Origin: Desulfurobacterium sp. TC5-1 | GTDB taxonomy: Bacteria; Aquificota; Aquificia; Desulfurobacteriales; Desulfurobacteriaceae | Direction: 5' to 3' | Assembly: GCF_000421485.1 (NCBI RefSeq) | Contig: NZ_ATXC01000001.1 | Span: 806,001-870,000 of the forward strand | DNA: 64,000 bases | Notes under the pieces: model-generated | The model's input: the letters and a program-made list of their open reading frames with translations, nothing else | Told to the model about the DNA's origin: nothing | Database searches by the model: none | Program-made: the position numbers and the translations under genes | Part shown: positions 56,800 through 62,781 of the stretch, one piece after another | Layout of the letters: the number at the start of each line of letters is the position of its first letter | Numbering within the stretch: position 1 is the first letter of the stretch

Positions 56800-57591
56800 A
56801 CATCAACCCCTCACACTTATCAGGGCATTTCAATACATAAGCCAAACGGAAGGAAAACCCCTTCCTCCTGATAAGTCGCAATCCCTCTCATTTATCAGGG
56901 CATTTCAACAGACAATAAGAGTCAAATCCGACCTCAATTCCCTTTCTAGTCGCAATCCCTCACATTTATCAGGGCATTTCAACTTAATGAAATAACACAT
57001 TACTTCAATAATGATTTTCAATTGTCGCAATCCCTCTCTTTTATCAGGGCATTTCAACGACGGCGTAGAGATTGGCTATGAAAGTATCATCGAAGATTGG
57101 CTTGTCGCAATCCCTCTCTTTTATCAGGGCATTTCAACAAAAAAATAGACAATTTTTCTTTCCAACATCCAGAAGGTCGCAATCCCTCACATTTATCAGG
57201 GCATTTCAACAAATCGTATCCCTTATAAAAGAGGCTAAAAAGGAAAAACTCGTCGCAATCCCTCACATTTATCAGGGCATTTCAACCCTCAGGAGGTCCG
57301 GCCTCTTGGGGATACTGTGGATAGTCGCAATCCCTCTCATTTATCAGGGCATTTCAACAGGACGATGGAAAGGATTGCGAAAAGGCTTCTTCCTTTGGAG
57401 TCGCAATCCCTCTCTTTTATCAGGGCATTTCAACATTAATTTATCTGCAATAAAAGAAGAGACTAAATGGGTTGAGGAGGTCGCAATCCCTCTCTTTTAT
57501 CAGGGCATTTCAACGGGAAGTATGTTTCTCTCTGTGTGTCAGGACAGGATGTAGTAGTCGCAATCCCTCTCTTTTATCAGGGCATTTCAAC
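56800..57591 (-). CRISPR. CRISPR array: 11 repeats of 35 nt, 10 spacers, no cas genes in window
   Basis: Repeats start at 56800 (degenerate), 56875, 56949, 57024, 57104, 57176, 57252, 57324, 57400, 57480 and 57557. On the plus strand each begins GTCGCAATCCCTC and ends TTATCAGGGCATTTCAAC. Spacers are 37-45 nt. Transcription is assigned to the minus strand: read that way the repeat ends in ATTGCGAC, like the 8-nt 5' handle of type I/III crRNAs, and the degenerate repeat (28 of 35 matches) falls at the leader-distal end. Three repeat variants differ inside the predicted loop. Type cannot be assigned without cas genes, but the repeat style suggests type I-B or III. Confidence 0.97.
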
Positions 57592-57747
57592 AGCACCGAA
57601 TTTCAACCGTTGACTCTCTATCTCTTCAGAACTTAAGTTCTTTACAATAAACTAATAAGCCTTGCAACGCAACCACTCTGAACATACAATTTTTTTAAGA
57701 GGTTTTCGCCTATTCAGATGTAAAAGACCTTACCGGGAATTATTATA
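57592..57747 (-). promoter_or_regulatory. Probable CRISPR leader
   Basis: 156-base AT-rich gap between the first repeat and mutS2, with no gene. It contains a perfect 14-bp palindrome AGAACTTAAGTTCT (57628-57641), a repeat-like ATTTCAAC (57600-57607) next to the array, and on the minus strand a weak promoter candidate (TTGCGT-17-TATTGT). It also has to hold the end of the mutS2 transcript; no terminator hairpin was seen. Confidence 0.6.
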
Positions 57748-60027
57748 CTATTTCAGCTCCACAATCGTAACACCGTCACCGCCTTCTTCTATTCTTCCAC
57801 CGCGGAAAGATTTAACATAAGGTGAATCTTTTAGATATGTCCTGACAAGCCGCTTTAAAATGCCTGTTCCGTGACCGTGAACGATTTTTACCCTGTGAAA
57901 TCCCGCAAGTCTTGCATCATCAAGGAATTTTTCAACAGCATCAAGTGCCTCATCGCCTCTCATTCCAAGCAGTTTAATTTCAGGGAAAAAGTTTTGAGGC
58001 ACCTTTGCGTCTATCCTTATTTTTTTCTTTTCGGCAACGGTTTCAATAACAGGCTCAAGCTGATTTAACTTCATATCTATTTTTAAAGCACCTATCGCAA
58101 CCTTTGCTATACCTCTTTCTGTATCAACAGTTATAACTGTTCCTTTCCTTCCTGTTTTCTTGATCTTTACAATCATGCCGGGCTTTATTTCCGCGGCAGC
58201 TCTTTTTATCTCTTTTTCTTCCGCCGCTTCCACTTTCTTTTTAGCTTCCTGTATCAGCGCCCTTACCTTTTTCCTGAGCCTTTCGTCCTGAATTTCAGAA
58301 AGAAGCTTTTCACTCTTTTCTCTAAATTCCCTTATGTAAGCCTGAAGGTTCTCAACACCTCTCTCTTTTAAAAGTTCTTTTTCTTTTTCAAGCTTTTCTC
58401 TTTCTCTTTCAAGCTCTTCTTTTAATTTTGCAACCTCTTCCCTTTCATTTTGAAGGGCTCTATATTCAGACTCGAGGGCTGCAACAATCTCAGATGCAAT
58501 CCTATCCTCTGAAGATAGAAGCTTCTGCGCCTTTTCTATAACAGCATCAGGCATTCCGTAACGTTTCGCTATGATAAATGCGTAGCTTCTGCCTATGACA
58601 CCGTAAGCAAGGCGGTATAGAGGTTTCAAACTCTTTTCATCAAAGAGAACAGATGCAACCTCATAATAGTCGTCCTTATAAGCGTAAAGTTTTATCGGCG
58701 TAAAGTGGGTCGTTATGATTGAAACGGCGCCTTTTTCTTTTAAGTATTCAAGTATCGCAACACCAAGGCTTGAACCTTCTACCGGATCTGTTCCGGCACC
58801 GAGCTCATCAAGAAGAACGAGGGTATCTTTATCAGCCTCGCTAAGAATCTCAGAAATGTTCTTAACATGGGCACTGAAAGTGCTCAAACTCTGTTCAATG
58901 CTCTGTTCGTCGCCTATGTCTGCCCTTACTTTTTTAAAAATACGGATTTTACTGCCTTCCGCAGCAGGTATGAGAAATCCCGATTGAAACATCAAAACGG
59001 AAAGCCCCAGAGTCTTGAGTATTACCGTTTTACCGCCGGTATTGGGACCTGTAATGACAAGGCCTTTTTCAACCTTTACATCAACAGGAATAACTTCTTT
59101 CTGTGAAAGGACGAGAAGCGGATGTCTTGCATCTTTAAGTTCTATCCTGTCCGAAATCTCAGGAAGCGTGCCTTTCAATCTGCGGCTCATCTCAGCAGTT
59201 GCGTACCGTCTATCAAGTTCAACAAGTGTGGAAAAAGCCGCAGAAATGCGGAATCTGTTTTCCCTTATCTTCTTGCTTATGTAGGCAAGAATCCTCTTTA
59301 TCTCTTTTTCCTCTTCCGCTGCAAGCTCCCTCAACCTGTTGTTATCGTCAACAACAAAGGCAGGTTCAACATAGACAGTCTGTCCCGATATCGAACGGTC
59401 GTGAACGATGCCTGAAAACCGCTTTTTGTAACTGTTTTTGGCAAGGACAACGTATCTACCGTTCCTTATCGTTATAATCTGGTCGGGACATATATCTTCG
59501 TTCCTTCTAACAAGGGATTCAAGACGTTTCTTTATGCTGTCGGCTATCTGTCTCTTTTTCTCCCTTATCATTCTAAGGTTAGAAGAAGCAGTATCAAGAA
59601 TCTCACCGCTTTCGTCAATGGAAGTGTCAATAAGTTCTCTCAATTCAAGAAAACTTGAGAGAGAACCGGAAAAAGCTGAAAGCCTCGGAAACCTTTCTCT
59701 TATGTCGTTAAGAAACTTCTTTACAATCTTTGACTGGCAGCAGACAGTGTAAACAGACAGGATTTCCGGAATTGAAAATACTGCACCTTCAACCTTTGCC
59801 TTTTTTATAACCGATGAAATATCGGGAAAAGCTTCAAGGGGAAAAGACCTTTCTGTTAAAAGCCTTACAAATTCAAATGTAATAAGTGTCTCTTCCGTTA
59901 TCTCCGAAACATCGGTGGAAGGTGTAATAGAGAGAACAGCCCTTCTGCCCGGTTCACTTCGGGCAAGGGAGGCAGTTTTCTCAAGAAGAGTATCAAAATC
60001 AAGGTGGCGCCACACTCCTTTGAACAT
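57748..60027 (-). CDS. mutS2: MutS2, endonuclease/ribosome-rescue factor
   Basis: 759 residues from the ATG at 60027; a TTG at 60048 overlaps the GGAGGGGG ribosome-binding site and is rejected. MutS core and lever domains lead to the ATPase with Walker A ITGPNTGGKTVILKT (about 323), LLDELGAGTDP, a long coiled coil (about 500-590), the KOW-like region and a C-terminal Smr domain (MRGDEALDAVEKFLDD, VKIVHGHGTGILK). Bacterial MutS2 acts on branched DNA and on collided ribosomes. The start codon lies inside an inverted repeat (see separate entry). Its end borders the CRISPR leader. Confidence 0.96.
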   Translation of the reverse strand: MFKGVWRHLDFDTLLEKTASLARSEPGRRAVLSITPSTDVSEITEETLITFEFVRLLTERSFPLEAFPDISSVIKKAKVEGAVFSIPEILSVYTVCCQSKIVKKFLNDIRERFPRLSAFSGSLSSFLELRELIDTSIDESGEILDTASSNLRMIREKKRQIADSIKKRLESLVRRNEDICPDQIITIRNGRYVVLAKNSYKKRFSGIVHDRSISGQTVYVEPAFVVDDNNRLRELAAEEEKEIKRILAYISKKIRENRFRISAAFSTLVELDRRYATAEMSRRLKGTLPEISDRIELKDARHPLLVLSQKEVIPVDVKVEKGLVITGPNTGGKTVILKTLGLSVLMFQSGFLIPAAEGSKIRIFKKVRADIGDEQSIEQSLSTFSAHVKNISEILSEADKDTLVLLDELGAGTDPVEGSSLGVAILEYLKEKGAVSIITTHFTPIKLYAYKDDYYEVASVLFDEKSLKPLYRLAYGVIGRSYAFIIAKRYGMPDAVIEKAQKLLSSEDRIASEIVAALESEYRALQNEREEVAKLKEELEREREKLEKEKELLKERGVENLQAYIREFREKSEKLLSEIQDERLRKKVRALIQEAKKKVEAAEEKEIKRAAAEIKPGMIVKIKKTGRKGTVITVDTERGIAKVAIGALKIDMKLNQLEPVIETVAEKKKIRIDAKVPQNFFPEIKLLGMRGDEALDAVEKFLDDARLAGFHRVKIVHGHGTGILKRLVRTYLKDSPYVKSFRGGRIEEGGDGVTIVELK

Positions 60028-60073
60028 TATTATGAATACCCCCTCCAATAGACCAAAGGAGTGCCAGCGCCAC
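60004..60073 (-). promoter_or_regulatory. Long hairpin enclosing the mutS2 ribosome-binding site and start codon
   Basis: Plus-strand arms 60004-60022 and 60054-60073 are complementary over 7 bp (GTGGCGC) and 10 bp (CACTCCTTTG), with a 2-by-3 internal loop. The 31-base loop holds GGAGGGGG and the ATG at 60025-60027. In mRNA the ribosome-binding site would be displayed in the loop of a strong stem. A TATAAT at 60080-60075 (minus strand) would start transcripts within the 5' arm and lose part of the outer stem. Regulatory function is inferred. Confidence 0.6.
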
Positions 60074-60091
60074 GATTATAAGCCATGGTAA

Positions 60092-60544
60092 TTAACCTTC
60101 TCCTGAGAGAAGTTCTCTTGCAATCCTGTTAACAACAGAACCGTCAGCCTTTCCTTTTACCTTTGGCATTACAACCTTCATAACCTTACCTAAATCCTTC
60201 GGTGAAGAAGCTCCCGTTCCAGCTATGGCTTCCTCAACTATCCTGCGAATCTCATCTTCACTCATCTGCTCTGGAAGGTAAGACTCAACAATGGCAAGCT
60301 CTGCCTTTTCCTTCTCTACGAGATCCTGCCTGCCACCTTTTTCGTAGAGTTCTATGGACTCACGTCTCTGCTTTGCGTACTTTTGAAGCAGAGAAACAAT
60401 CTCTTCGTCTGTAAGTTCGCCGCGCTTGTCTATCTCAGCGTTTTTTATAAGAGAGTTTATCATTCTTATGGTGCTGAGTTTAACCTTATCCCTGGCCTTC
60501 ATGGCCTCTTTCATGTCTTTAATGAGTCTCTCTTTTAATCCCAT
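60092..60544 (-). CDS. yqeY: GatB/YqeY domain-containing protein
   Basis: 150 residues matching the full-length YqeY family: MGLKERLIKDMKEAMKARDKVKLSTIRMI at the start (conserved RxxTLRxL-like element) and SPKDLGKVMKVVMPKVKGKADGSVVNRI near the end. The C-terminal domain resembles the tRNA-binding tail of GatB. Role unclear, possibly tRNA-related. It sits 20 bases after rpsU, a common pairing. Confidence 0.93.
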   Translation of the reverse strand: MGLKERLIKDMKEAMKARDKVKLSTIRMINSLIKNAEIDKRGELTDEEIVSLLQKYAKQRRESIELYEKGGRQDLVEKEKAELAIVESYLPEQMSEDEIRRIVEEAIAGTGASSPKDLGKVMKVVMPKVKGKADGSVVNRIARELLSGEG

Positions 60545-60564
60545 CAGTAATGCCTCTTAAACAA

Positions 60565-60792
60565 TTACTTTTTCTTCTTCTTACCTCTTGGCGGAAGAAG
60601 ACCGCGCTTCTTGAGAGCCTTGATAAGACGCTTTCTTGCAGCCATAGCCTTTCTCTTTCTCTTTTCACTTGGCTTCTCGTAGTATTCTCTCCTCTTAATC
60701 TCAGTAAGAATACCCTCCTTTTCGCACAGCTTCTTGAATCTCTTTAGCGCCTTCTCGAATGGCTCTCCGTCACGGACGTAAATTGTTGCCAT
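60565..60792 (-). CDS. rpsU: Small ribosomal subunit protein bS21
   Basis: 75 residues. [43 protein letters not shown] is the hallmark, with a highly basic C-terminus. Protein S21 sits by the anti-Shine-Dalgarno region of 16S rRNA. A GGAGGCGATG ribosome-binding region and a strong promoter precede it. Confidence 0.96.
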
Positions 60793-60830
60793 TAAGCATC
60801 GCCTCCTTTGGTGGTAATTTTGCTACTGCC

Positions 60831-60859
60831 ATTATATTACCACGATTACCGATTTGCAA
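60831..60859 (-). promoter_or_regulatory. Promoter of rpsU-yqeY
   Basis: On the minus strand, -35 TTGCAA (60859-60854), exact 17-base spacer and consensus -10 TATAAT (60836-60831), 38 bases before the rpsU ATG. Confidence 0.72.
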
Positions 60860-60912
60860 CTGTTTTCAAAAGCTTCAGAGTGAAGATTAGAAAATTTTCA
60901 AAAGGAAAATGG

Positions 60913-62781
60913 TCACTTGTGCAACTTTCTCTTCCCATTCGAATCTCTAACAGTTACACCTTCAGCGTCAAGGAGTTCAAGGAATGGAATGGCGTGTTTC
61001 CTTGAAAGGTTAAAGAGATTTTTAAAATCGCCAACTGTTATTTCACCTTTCTCCTTCAAAAGATTAACTGTCTTCTCTTTAATCTCTTTAAACATCTCCG
61101 GTAAAAGCAGAAAATCTCCTGCCGTCCTGTAACCTTCCCTCTTTAAAAATGATAAAAGCATGTAAAACTCATCGGATGGTACGTTTAACTTTTCCTTTAA
61201 AGTGCTCAGAGTAGGCACTGACAGGCCGCTCTTTTCAAGTTCTGCATCTATGTCCTCTTTTAGTTTTGAAAATTTTTCATCAAGGTGAGGGCTGAAATCT
61301 TCTAACTTTATAACTTTTCCGTTCTCTTCAAGTCCTGCTGAGGAAATAATATTTAAAAAGAGTTCATCTCCCACGTTCAAAAGGCTCTTCAGTGTCTCTC
61401 TATTTATTCCGTCTGCAACGGGATACTCTTCGTGATAGTCAGCAACAAGTTCTAAAGCCCTGTTTACCAGCAATTTAAAAGTTTCAACCGTGTAGATAAG
61501 CCCATCTGCAACGATAACTTTTCCTTCTTTTTTAAACTTTTCAACAAGTGTTTTCGCTTCATCTAAAGAAAGATTTAACAGCTGAGGTAAAAGCTTAATT
61601 TCAAGAGGTTCAAACTCCCCAACAAATTCCATGAACGCCGATTCCTTCCCTTTATAAAGGGCATTCAGCTTCTCTATAAACTTGTCTGCAAACTTTTTAC
61701 GATAACGTCTCGTTTCAAGAGGATGAAGAATCGTACCGCCACCTATAACCCTGCCCGGTGAAATCGTCCTGACAACAAAGTTATCGCCGTAAACCGGATA
61801 AATATCCCTGTCAAAAATCACCTGTGCAAAGCAGGTTTCACCGGGATTTAAAATGTCCCTATCTACAAGGACAATTTCCGCCTCAGCCATAAGGGTAAGG
61901 TAGTGGAAGTGAACCTTCTGCCTCTTTTTAACCGCAGGTGCAGATTTTGAAAGTGTAAAAGTTACATCAACAATCCTTGAAGACCTTAAAGTTCCAGGTA
62001 CCGTTAAGATATCACCTCTGTGAACCTTTTCTTTCGGCACTGTTAAATTTGCAGCTGTCCGCTGCCCTGGAAAAGCTTTATCTACGTCTTTACCTGCCGT
62101 CTGAAGATTCTTTATTTTCGTCTCTATTTTAGAAGGCAGAATCTCAACCGTATCGCCCTTTGAAAGTTCACCATCCGAAAGCGTGCCTGTAACGACAGTG
62201 CCAAAACCCTTTACAGTAAAAACTCTATCAACAGGCAGGCGGGGAAAGCTTCTTCCTTTCCGTACATCAAGAGATTCAACTAACTTTTTCAGTTCATCCT
62301 TTAAAACATCAAAACCTGCACCGGTTTTTGAAGAAACCTTTACAAAAGGTGCCTTTTCAAGGAAAGTCTCTTTCAGAAAATCCCTGACATCTTCTTCAAC
62401 AAGCTCAAGCCACTCTTCATCAACAGTGTCAACCTTCGTAAGAACGACAATACCCTTTTCTATTCCAAGCATCTGACAGACAGTAAGGTGTTCCTCTGTC
62501 TGCGGCATTACTCCCTCATCAGCTGCAATCACAAAAAGAACACCGTCTATGCCGTGAGCACCGGCAACCATGTTTTTTATAAATTTTTCATGCCCGGGAA
62601 CATCAACAATGCTTATCAGGCAGTCATCAAGGAAGAAATGGGCAAAACCGGGTTCTATGGTCATGCCTCTCTCTTTTTCTTCTTTCAAACGGTCCGTATC
62701 AACACCCGTAAGCCTTTTTACCAGAGAGGTTTTGCCGTGGTCTATATGTCCAGCAGTTCCTATTGTTACTACCTTTTTCAT
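60913..62781 (-). CDS. selB: Selenocysteine-specific elongation factor SelB
   Basis: 622 residues. GTPase domain: [18 protein letters not shown] (G1), VDVPGHEKF (G3), TKVD (G4); domains 2-3; then several winged-helix domains (about 370-622) that bind the SECIS hairpin. The [19 protein letters not shown] switch region is SelB-specific. It delivers Sec-tRNA to recoded UGA codons, so the organism should make selenoproteins. selA, selC and selD are not in the window, and I saw no in-frame UGA selenoprotein here. It overlaps gpsA by 4 bases. Confidence 0.95.

What the first reader, a model, noticed from the sequence alone, without database searches (positions are those of the whole stretch)
60004..60080. 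mutS2 start codon and ribosome-binding site held in the loop of a 17-bp hairpin
Arms of 7 and 10 perfect pairs flank a 31-base loop with GGAGGGGG and ATG. The 3' arm lies in codons 3-8 and itself contains AAAGGAG. A TATAAT just upstream would start messages inside the 5' arm, so readthrough and local transcripts would differ in structure. MutS2 acts on stalled ribosomes, so a translation-linked or temperature-linked switch is an appealing idea.
Basis: partly seen in the sequence, partly recalled or inferred. Interest (0 to 1): 0.58.

Follow-up and report, generated by a model that had tools for sequence, protein, structure and literature searches.

The report
Conserved hairpin RNA heading mutS2
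A hairpin around the start of the ribosome-rescue gene mutS2 is a real RNA structure that evolution has kept, with an almost unchanging loop, in one family of hot-vent bacteria, even in species where the gene starts elsewhere, so it is probably an undescribed regulatory RNA rather than a simple lid on a start codon.

Summary
The hairpin is real, on the minus strand. One copy per genome occurs in 18 of 22 held genomes of the family Desulfurobacteriaceae; the 4 others also lack yqeY in their assemblies. None of 114 other phylum genomes has it. The helix covaries: 22 double-change cells against 6.7 in shuffles; 27 G-U and no A-C pairs fix the strand. Where the 3' arm is coding, same-residue codons are 93% identical against 43% elsewhere in mutS2. 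The RNA is conserved, not the trapped start codon: in 6 of 18 genomes the loop has no ATG; in G011 mutS2 starts well beyond the hairpin; in G009 mutS2 lies elsewhere while the element stands alone with a -10 box before it and a T-run after it. A promoter-like site precedes 17 of 18 copies. The helix is predicted not to melt at growth temperature. Best reading: an undescribed, family-specific structured RNA, mostly a mutS2 leader, read by an unknown partner through its loop; function unproven.

The parts
59998..60071 (-). conserved structured RNA element (covariance-model match, 74 nt)
   Evidence: 87.9 bits, E 2.6e-16 with model R1, which was built from this and 15 other sequences
60067..60073 (-). 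outer helix, 5' arm (GTGGCGC)
   Evidence: the outer pairs covary CG/UA and GC/AU in relatives
60004..60010 (-). outer helix, 3' arm (GCGCCAC), mutS2 codons 6-8
   Evidence: codon 7 is CGC, CGT, TAC or CAC among relatives, in step with the 5' arm
60054..60063 (-). inner helix, 5' arm (CACTCCTTTG)
60013..60022 (-). inner helix, 3' arm (CAAAGGAGTG), contains AAAGGAG
60023..60053 (-). loop with the nearly invariant GGAGGGGGTnTTyATA stretch; holds the ATG in this genome
   Evidence: 17 of 32 loop columns invariant in 18 genomes
60025..60027 (-). mutS2 start codon in the loop (present in 12 of 18 genomes)
   Evidence: N-terminus MFKGVWRHLDFD is about as long as the usual one in relatives
57748..60027 (-). 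mutS2 coding sequence
   Evidence: Pfam MutS_V, Smr, MSSS
60075..60080 (-). TATAAT, -10-like; no convincing -35
60092..60544 (-). yqeY, upstream gene; the element follows yqeY also in G009
   Evidence: Pfam YqeY
60030..60086 (-). possible 18-codon upstream reading frame through the 5' arm and loop, ending just before the mutS2 ATG
   Evidence: read by eye; frame listed

Best explanation
A family-specific structured RNA of about 75 nt: an 18-20 bp helix closed by a 27-31 nt loop of nearly invariant sequence. It is made on the mutS2 strand, probably from a sigma-70-type promoter in the end of yqeY, and in 17 of 18 genomes forms the head of the mutS2 message. Because loop sequence and helix are both kept, and are kept where the start codon has left the loop, the element most likely works by being recognised through its loop by a trans partner (a protein, or the ribosome), mainly to set mutS2 expression or message fate in cis. 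In G009 it appears as a free-standing small RNA, so it can probably act without mutS2 attached. Shown by comparison: the RNA structure, its strand, its conservation, its independence from the start codon. Inferred: transcription start, partner, regulatory effect.
For: One strong match per genome in 18 of 22 family genomes; the 4 misses give no match for yqeY, and mutS2 is cut at a contig end in three of them and lacks a convincing match in the fourth. Helix: 99.0% of cells paired, 8 pairs with double changes, 22 double-change cells versus 6.7 in shuffles, 0/500. Strand: 276 Watson-Crick, 27 G-U, 0 A-C, 3 other. Codons 2-8: 265 of 286 same-residue codon pairs identical versus 10,895 of 25,118 in the rest (11 of the 12 loop-ATG genomes, G012 left out because its mutS2 is split between contigs). 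Loop ATG missing in 6 of 18 with helix and loop kept. Promoter-like site in 17 of 18 upstream stretches versus mean 4.1, maximum 8 in shuffles. G009: the element follows yqeY and ends in TTTCTATTTTTTT; convergent sigma factor next; mutS2 on another contig. Between G009 and G017 the element is identical at 53 of 65 columns while yqeY four-fold sites are identical at 16 of 46.
Against: No transcript or protein data were available and no partner is known. The two genomes whose mutS2 start is fully uncoupled (G011, G009) have the lowest scores, 68.9 and 66.0 bits against 82-96, as partial relaxation after uncoupling would give. The date of the G009 separation is unknown, so its element could be a young relic. 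In 17 of 18 no T-run follows the hairpin, which speaks against a small RNA there. In genus g1 the -10 box would start transcripts inside the outer arm. The tool's own promoter and terminator scan of the G009 locus listed nothing: it demands 9 of 12 with at least 4 of 6 in each hexamer, and loops of 3-8. The upper helix hardly varies, so mainly its lower half is proven by covariation.
Confidence: 0.5

Rival explanations
1. Trans-acting small RNA: the element is an RNA gene of its own between yqeY and mutS2, released by termination (G009) or by cleavage of the leader, and the mutS2 start has simply grown into it in most species.
For: G009 looks like a compact RNA gene: TATAAT 9 bases before the stem, hairpin, T-run, no mutS2. 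Helix and loop kept where the ATG is lost.
Against: No terminator or obvious processing site in the other 17. The complement of the loop core (CCCCCTCCAA) shows no family-wide target: some genomes hold only the element itself. mutS2 linkage in 17 of 18.
Confidence: 0.3
2. Translational coupling through an upstream reading frame: ribosomes entering from the 5' arm frame open the hairpin and stop on or just before the mutS2 start.
For: The frame through the inner 5' arm stops in TAATG or TGATG at the mutS2 start in 13 of 17 mutS2-linked genomes, including the moved start of g7, and 2 bases before it in two more (counts read by eye from it). In g1 an ATG follows a GGAG at the yqeY end.
Against: The peptide is not conserved: single-base indels around the G-run shift the frame (g4, g7). 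G004 has no stop and reads into mutS2; G011 stops in the loop. In g7 the upstream ATG overlaps the -10 box. Loop length is 28 in 15 of 18, which RNA structure explains as well.
Confidence: 0.12
3. Temperature switch or simple lid hiding the mutS2 start.
For: AAAGGAG is buried in the helix; GGAGGGGG and ATG lie in the loop in 12 of 18 genomes.
Against: Predicted helix closed from 37 to 85 C, arm SD 15% free at 90 C; loop SD and ATG about 60-80% free throughout. Element kept without the ATG in 6 of 18.
Confidence: 0.05
4. DNA-level inverted repeat (protein site or cruciform) or chance.
For: The arms are an inverted repeat in DNA too.
Against: 27 G-U and no A-C pairs in the helix: a DNA palindrome would not favour G-U; covariation far above slid and shuffled controls.
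Confidence: 0.03

Closest known systems
RNA thermometers (ROSE, fourU; recalled)
   Same: Helix that buries an SD-like stretch at a start codon
   Different: Predicted not to melt in the growth range; loop sequence largely invariant; kept without a start codon
Riboswitch or protein-binding 5' leaders (e.g. autoregulatory leaders of ribosomal protein genes; recalled)
   Same: Conserved structure at the head of one gene's message behind a promoter-like site, invariant loop
   Different: No ligand or protein known, no Rfam match above a gathering score, no alternative fold seen
Bacterial small RNAs ending in an intrinsic terminator (recalled)
   Same: G009 copy: -10 box, hairpin, T-run
   Different: T-run only in 1 of 18; the others run on towards mutS2
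ncRNAs described in Aquificales (Lechner et al. 2014, PMC4227106)
   Same: Same order; D. thermolithotrophum and T. ammonificans were among the genomes
   Different: The main text has no occurrence of mutS or yqeY; the novel candidates it predicts are for Aquifex aeolicus; its supplement was not seen

Membership tests
RNA thermometer | Helix opens in the physiological range and frees the SD | tested here: not met
   Predicted closed at 70-85 C; arm SD 1-8% free. Prediction only.
Riboswitch | Match to a known aptamer family | tested here: not met
   No hit over a gathering score
Riboswitch | Ligand binding and expression platform | not testable with these tools
   Needs in-line probing
Intrinsic terminator | G+C-rich stem followed at once by a U-run | tested here: not met
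   U-run in 1 of 18 (G009)
6S RNA | Rfam RF00013 match | tested here: not met
   0 of 22 family genomes have a match over the cut-off; two weak matches lie on other contigs
CsrA-binding leader or sponge | CsrA present in the genome | tested here: not met
   No PF02599 match in the window's genome; 3 of 14 control genomes ring
Conserved structured RNA motif | Covarying helix above shuffled and slid controls | tested here: met
Conserved structured RNA motif | Transcribed in the cell | not testable with these tools
   Only promoter-like sequence, 17 of 18
mutS2 5' leader | Lies upstream of or over the mutS2 start | tested here: met
   17 of 18; not in G009

The most novel reading that the evidence does not exclude
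A free, loop-acting RNA gene of the Desulfurobacteriaceae, made from its own promoter, whose 3' half has been captured as the first codons of a ribosome-rescue gene, so that base pairing dictates the protein's N-terminus (codon 7 changes between R, Y and H to keep pairs), and which still acts in trans, perhaps on ribosomes, in all members.
Probability: 0.22. Interest if true: 0.72.

Novelty: new member of a known kind. Interest (0 to 1): 0.5.

Why it matters
It would be the first structured RNA tied to mutS2 that I could find, in a thermophile family with few described RNAs. It is a clean natural case of an RNA structure overlapping a coding start, where RNA pairing overrides codon and even amino-acid choice, and where absence of the loop start codon (g7 plus G009, and G011) separates the RNA's role from translation initiation. 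It gives a testable entry to how a ribosome-collision factor is controlled.

Tried and rejected
Known families: Rfam on the window and on the G009 copy gave only sub-threshold hairpin look-alikes such as miRNA models. 6S and CsrA were checked and rejected. tRNA or tmRNA: none at 59000-61000.

Mobile or viral element: no plasmid or phage match. Five viral contigs matched a loose pattern, but the covariance model gives at most 14.1 bits there. In the window's genome a loop pattern with 3 mismatches found the element at 0 mismatches and 5 others at 3; the control pattern gave 4.

Antisense targets of the loop core: no family-wide site. The orthology of single sites was not examined.

Conserved leader peptide: the frame is broken by indels across genera; kept as a minor rival because its stop often overlaps the mutS2 start.

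Wider spread: model R1 found no match in the 114 other genomes of the phylum (136 searched, 22 of them in the family, strict filters). R2 with permissive filters, given 23 genomes (19 of other families and the 4 family misses), gave one 19.1-bit match, E 0.78, taken as chance. An exact pattern over 84,980 species genomes hit 9 records, all titled Desulfurobacteriaceae, Thermovibrio or Desulfurobacterium. One 25.3-bit second match in G016 (E 0.036) was taken as chance and not followed.

Literature: searches. Read: PMC4227106 outline, passages, section 22 part 1 and section 29. PMC11109978, PMC8632094, PMC6429828 and PMC12724263: term look-ups only. MutS2 ribosome papers such as PMC10897456: search listing with the start of the abstract only. 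No paper was found that describes this element; that claim rests on these searches and on Rfam.

The first alignment A1 was misaligned by single-base indels and was replaced by A2 and A4; a fold of A1 was run. A3 was made but no model was built from it.

Full report
Observation. On the minus strand the gene order is selB, rpsU, yqeY, then mutS2. The fold is strong: z -3.5 on a 116-base stretch, and 4 of 12,786 window stretches fold as well, counting itself. Ten-base perfect arms alone are not rare (8 places in the window), so the case rests on comparison.

Comparison. mutS2 was searched in 41 genomes and the region upstream of its start read in the retrieved loci (mis-oriented the minus-strand loci and was replaced). 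A regular expression found the element in 16 loci among the 30 brought in. A covariance model built on these found one strong copy in 18 of 22 family genomes, 15 of 16 among the most complete; the copies of G009 and G012 were new. Weaker matches at 25-31 bits are the reverse strand of the same site, but for one in G016. The four genomes without it give no yqeY match in their assemblies; in G010, G015 and G020 mutS2 is cut at a contig end, and G013 is 62% complete with no convincing mutS2 match. None of the other 114 phylum genomes has it.

Structure. On 18 sequences (17 distinct) aligned to the model, the 18-pair helix has 99.0% of cells paired. For the whole 22-pair structure, 8 pairs change on both sides, and there are 22 double-change cells against 6.7 (sd 1.9) in shuffles, 0 of 500; sliding the partner by 1-3 columns gives 0 to 3 such cells. 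This alignment was fitted to the model; the MAFFT alignment of 16 gave 18 cells against 5.7. The small upper helix in the loop is weak (92.2% paired, no double change). Seven of 18 pairs of the main helix never vary, so its upper half is conserved in sequence rather than proven by covariation. In the main helix without its closing G-U pair there are 276 Watson-Crick, 27 G-U, 0 A-C and 3 other cells: the RNA is read on the mutS2 strand. Seventeen of 32 loop columns are invariant, and the loop between TTTGG and TTCAA is 28 nt in 15 of 18 genomes despite single-base indels (lengths counted by eye).

Coding overlap. In 12 of 18 genomes the loop has the ATG and the 3' arm is coding. In the 11 of those with an unsplit mutS2, codon pairs for the same residue are identical in 265 of 286 cases in codons 2-8, and in 10,895 of 25,118 in the rest; fully conserved residues use one codon in 3 of 3 columns against 3 of 224. 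Codon 7 reads CGC, CGT, TAC or CAC, and the residue R, Y or H, in step with the partner arm.

The start codon is not the conserved feature. In four g7 genomes the loop reads ACG and mutS2 begins just past the stem; in G011 it begins about 65 bases past it; in G009 the element follows yqeY, is followed by TTTCTATTTTTTT and a convergent sigma-70 factor gene, and mutS2 lies on another contig behind a transposase end. The mutS2 tree places g7 with G009, and G011 with g4, among loop-ATG genera, so loss of the loop ATG in two lineages is the simplest history, though several forks are weakly supported (82-94% bootstrap) or open. The ancestral state is not proven. Element identity between G009 and G017 is 53 of 65 columns, while yqeY four-fold sites are identical at 16 of 46. 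Against this, G009 and G011 have the lowest model scores, 66.0 and 68.9, and when G009 lost the linkage is unknown.

Transcription. With a loose rule (-10 at least 5 of 6, total at least 8 of 12, spacer 15-19), 17 of 18 stretches of 75 bases upstream hold a promoter-like site, shuffles mean 4.1 and maximum 8; related sequences are not independent, so this overstates the number of events. The -10 box lies 9-33 bases upstream of the modelled stem in 13 genomes, 3 bases in the 4 genomes of the window's genus, and none was found in G004. The stricter tool scan found no promoter and no terminator in the G009 locus.

Mechanism. The model predicts a closed helix through the growth range (growth optima of 70-75 C for two relatives are given in abstracts listed), which argues against a thermometer. 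Loop invariance calls for a partner that reads the loop. I consider a trans-read leader of mutS2 most likely, a small RNA next, coupling through the upstream frame third. No antisense target, CsrA or known RNA family explains it.

Novelty. No Rfam family and no paper found by the searches named in Tried and rejected describes it; the survey of Aquificales RNAs (PMC4227106) included two species of this family, and its main text has no occurrence of mutS or yqeY, but its supplement was not seen. I class it as a new member of a known kind, a bacterial structured RNA motif, of unproven function.

Noticed in passing
window 56804-57597: CRISPR-like array: 11 copies of a repeat (GTCGCAATCCCTCnCnTTTATCAGGGCATTTCAAC) spaced 72-80 bases just downstream of mutS2, with variable bases in the middle of the repeat; mechanical ORF 57072-57554 is this array.
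   Followed up: no
window 60030-60086: In the window's genus (4 of 4) a short reading frame starting ATGGCTTATAAT runs through the 5' arm and loop and ends on or just before the mutS2 ATG.
   Followed up: partly
L064 5937-6924 and L065 1-2497 (G009): rpsU-yqeY-element and mutS2 lie on separate contigs, each next to a similar rve_3 transposase end, suggesting an insertion-sequence-mediated split of the operon.
   Followed up: partly
G010, G012, G013, G015, G020: Five of 22 family assemblies break or lack sequence in or near the yqeY-mutS2 region, perhaps because it assembles poorly.
   Followed up: no
whole genomes of the family: Rfam's 6S model finds nothing over its cut-off in any of 22 Desulfurobacteriaceae genomes; PMC4227106 also calls the 6S of two members only candidates. 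The family's 6S RNA remains open.
   Followed up: no
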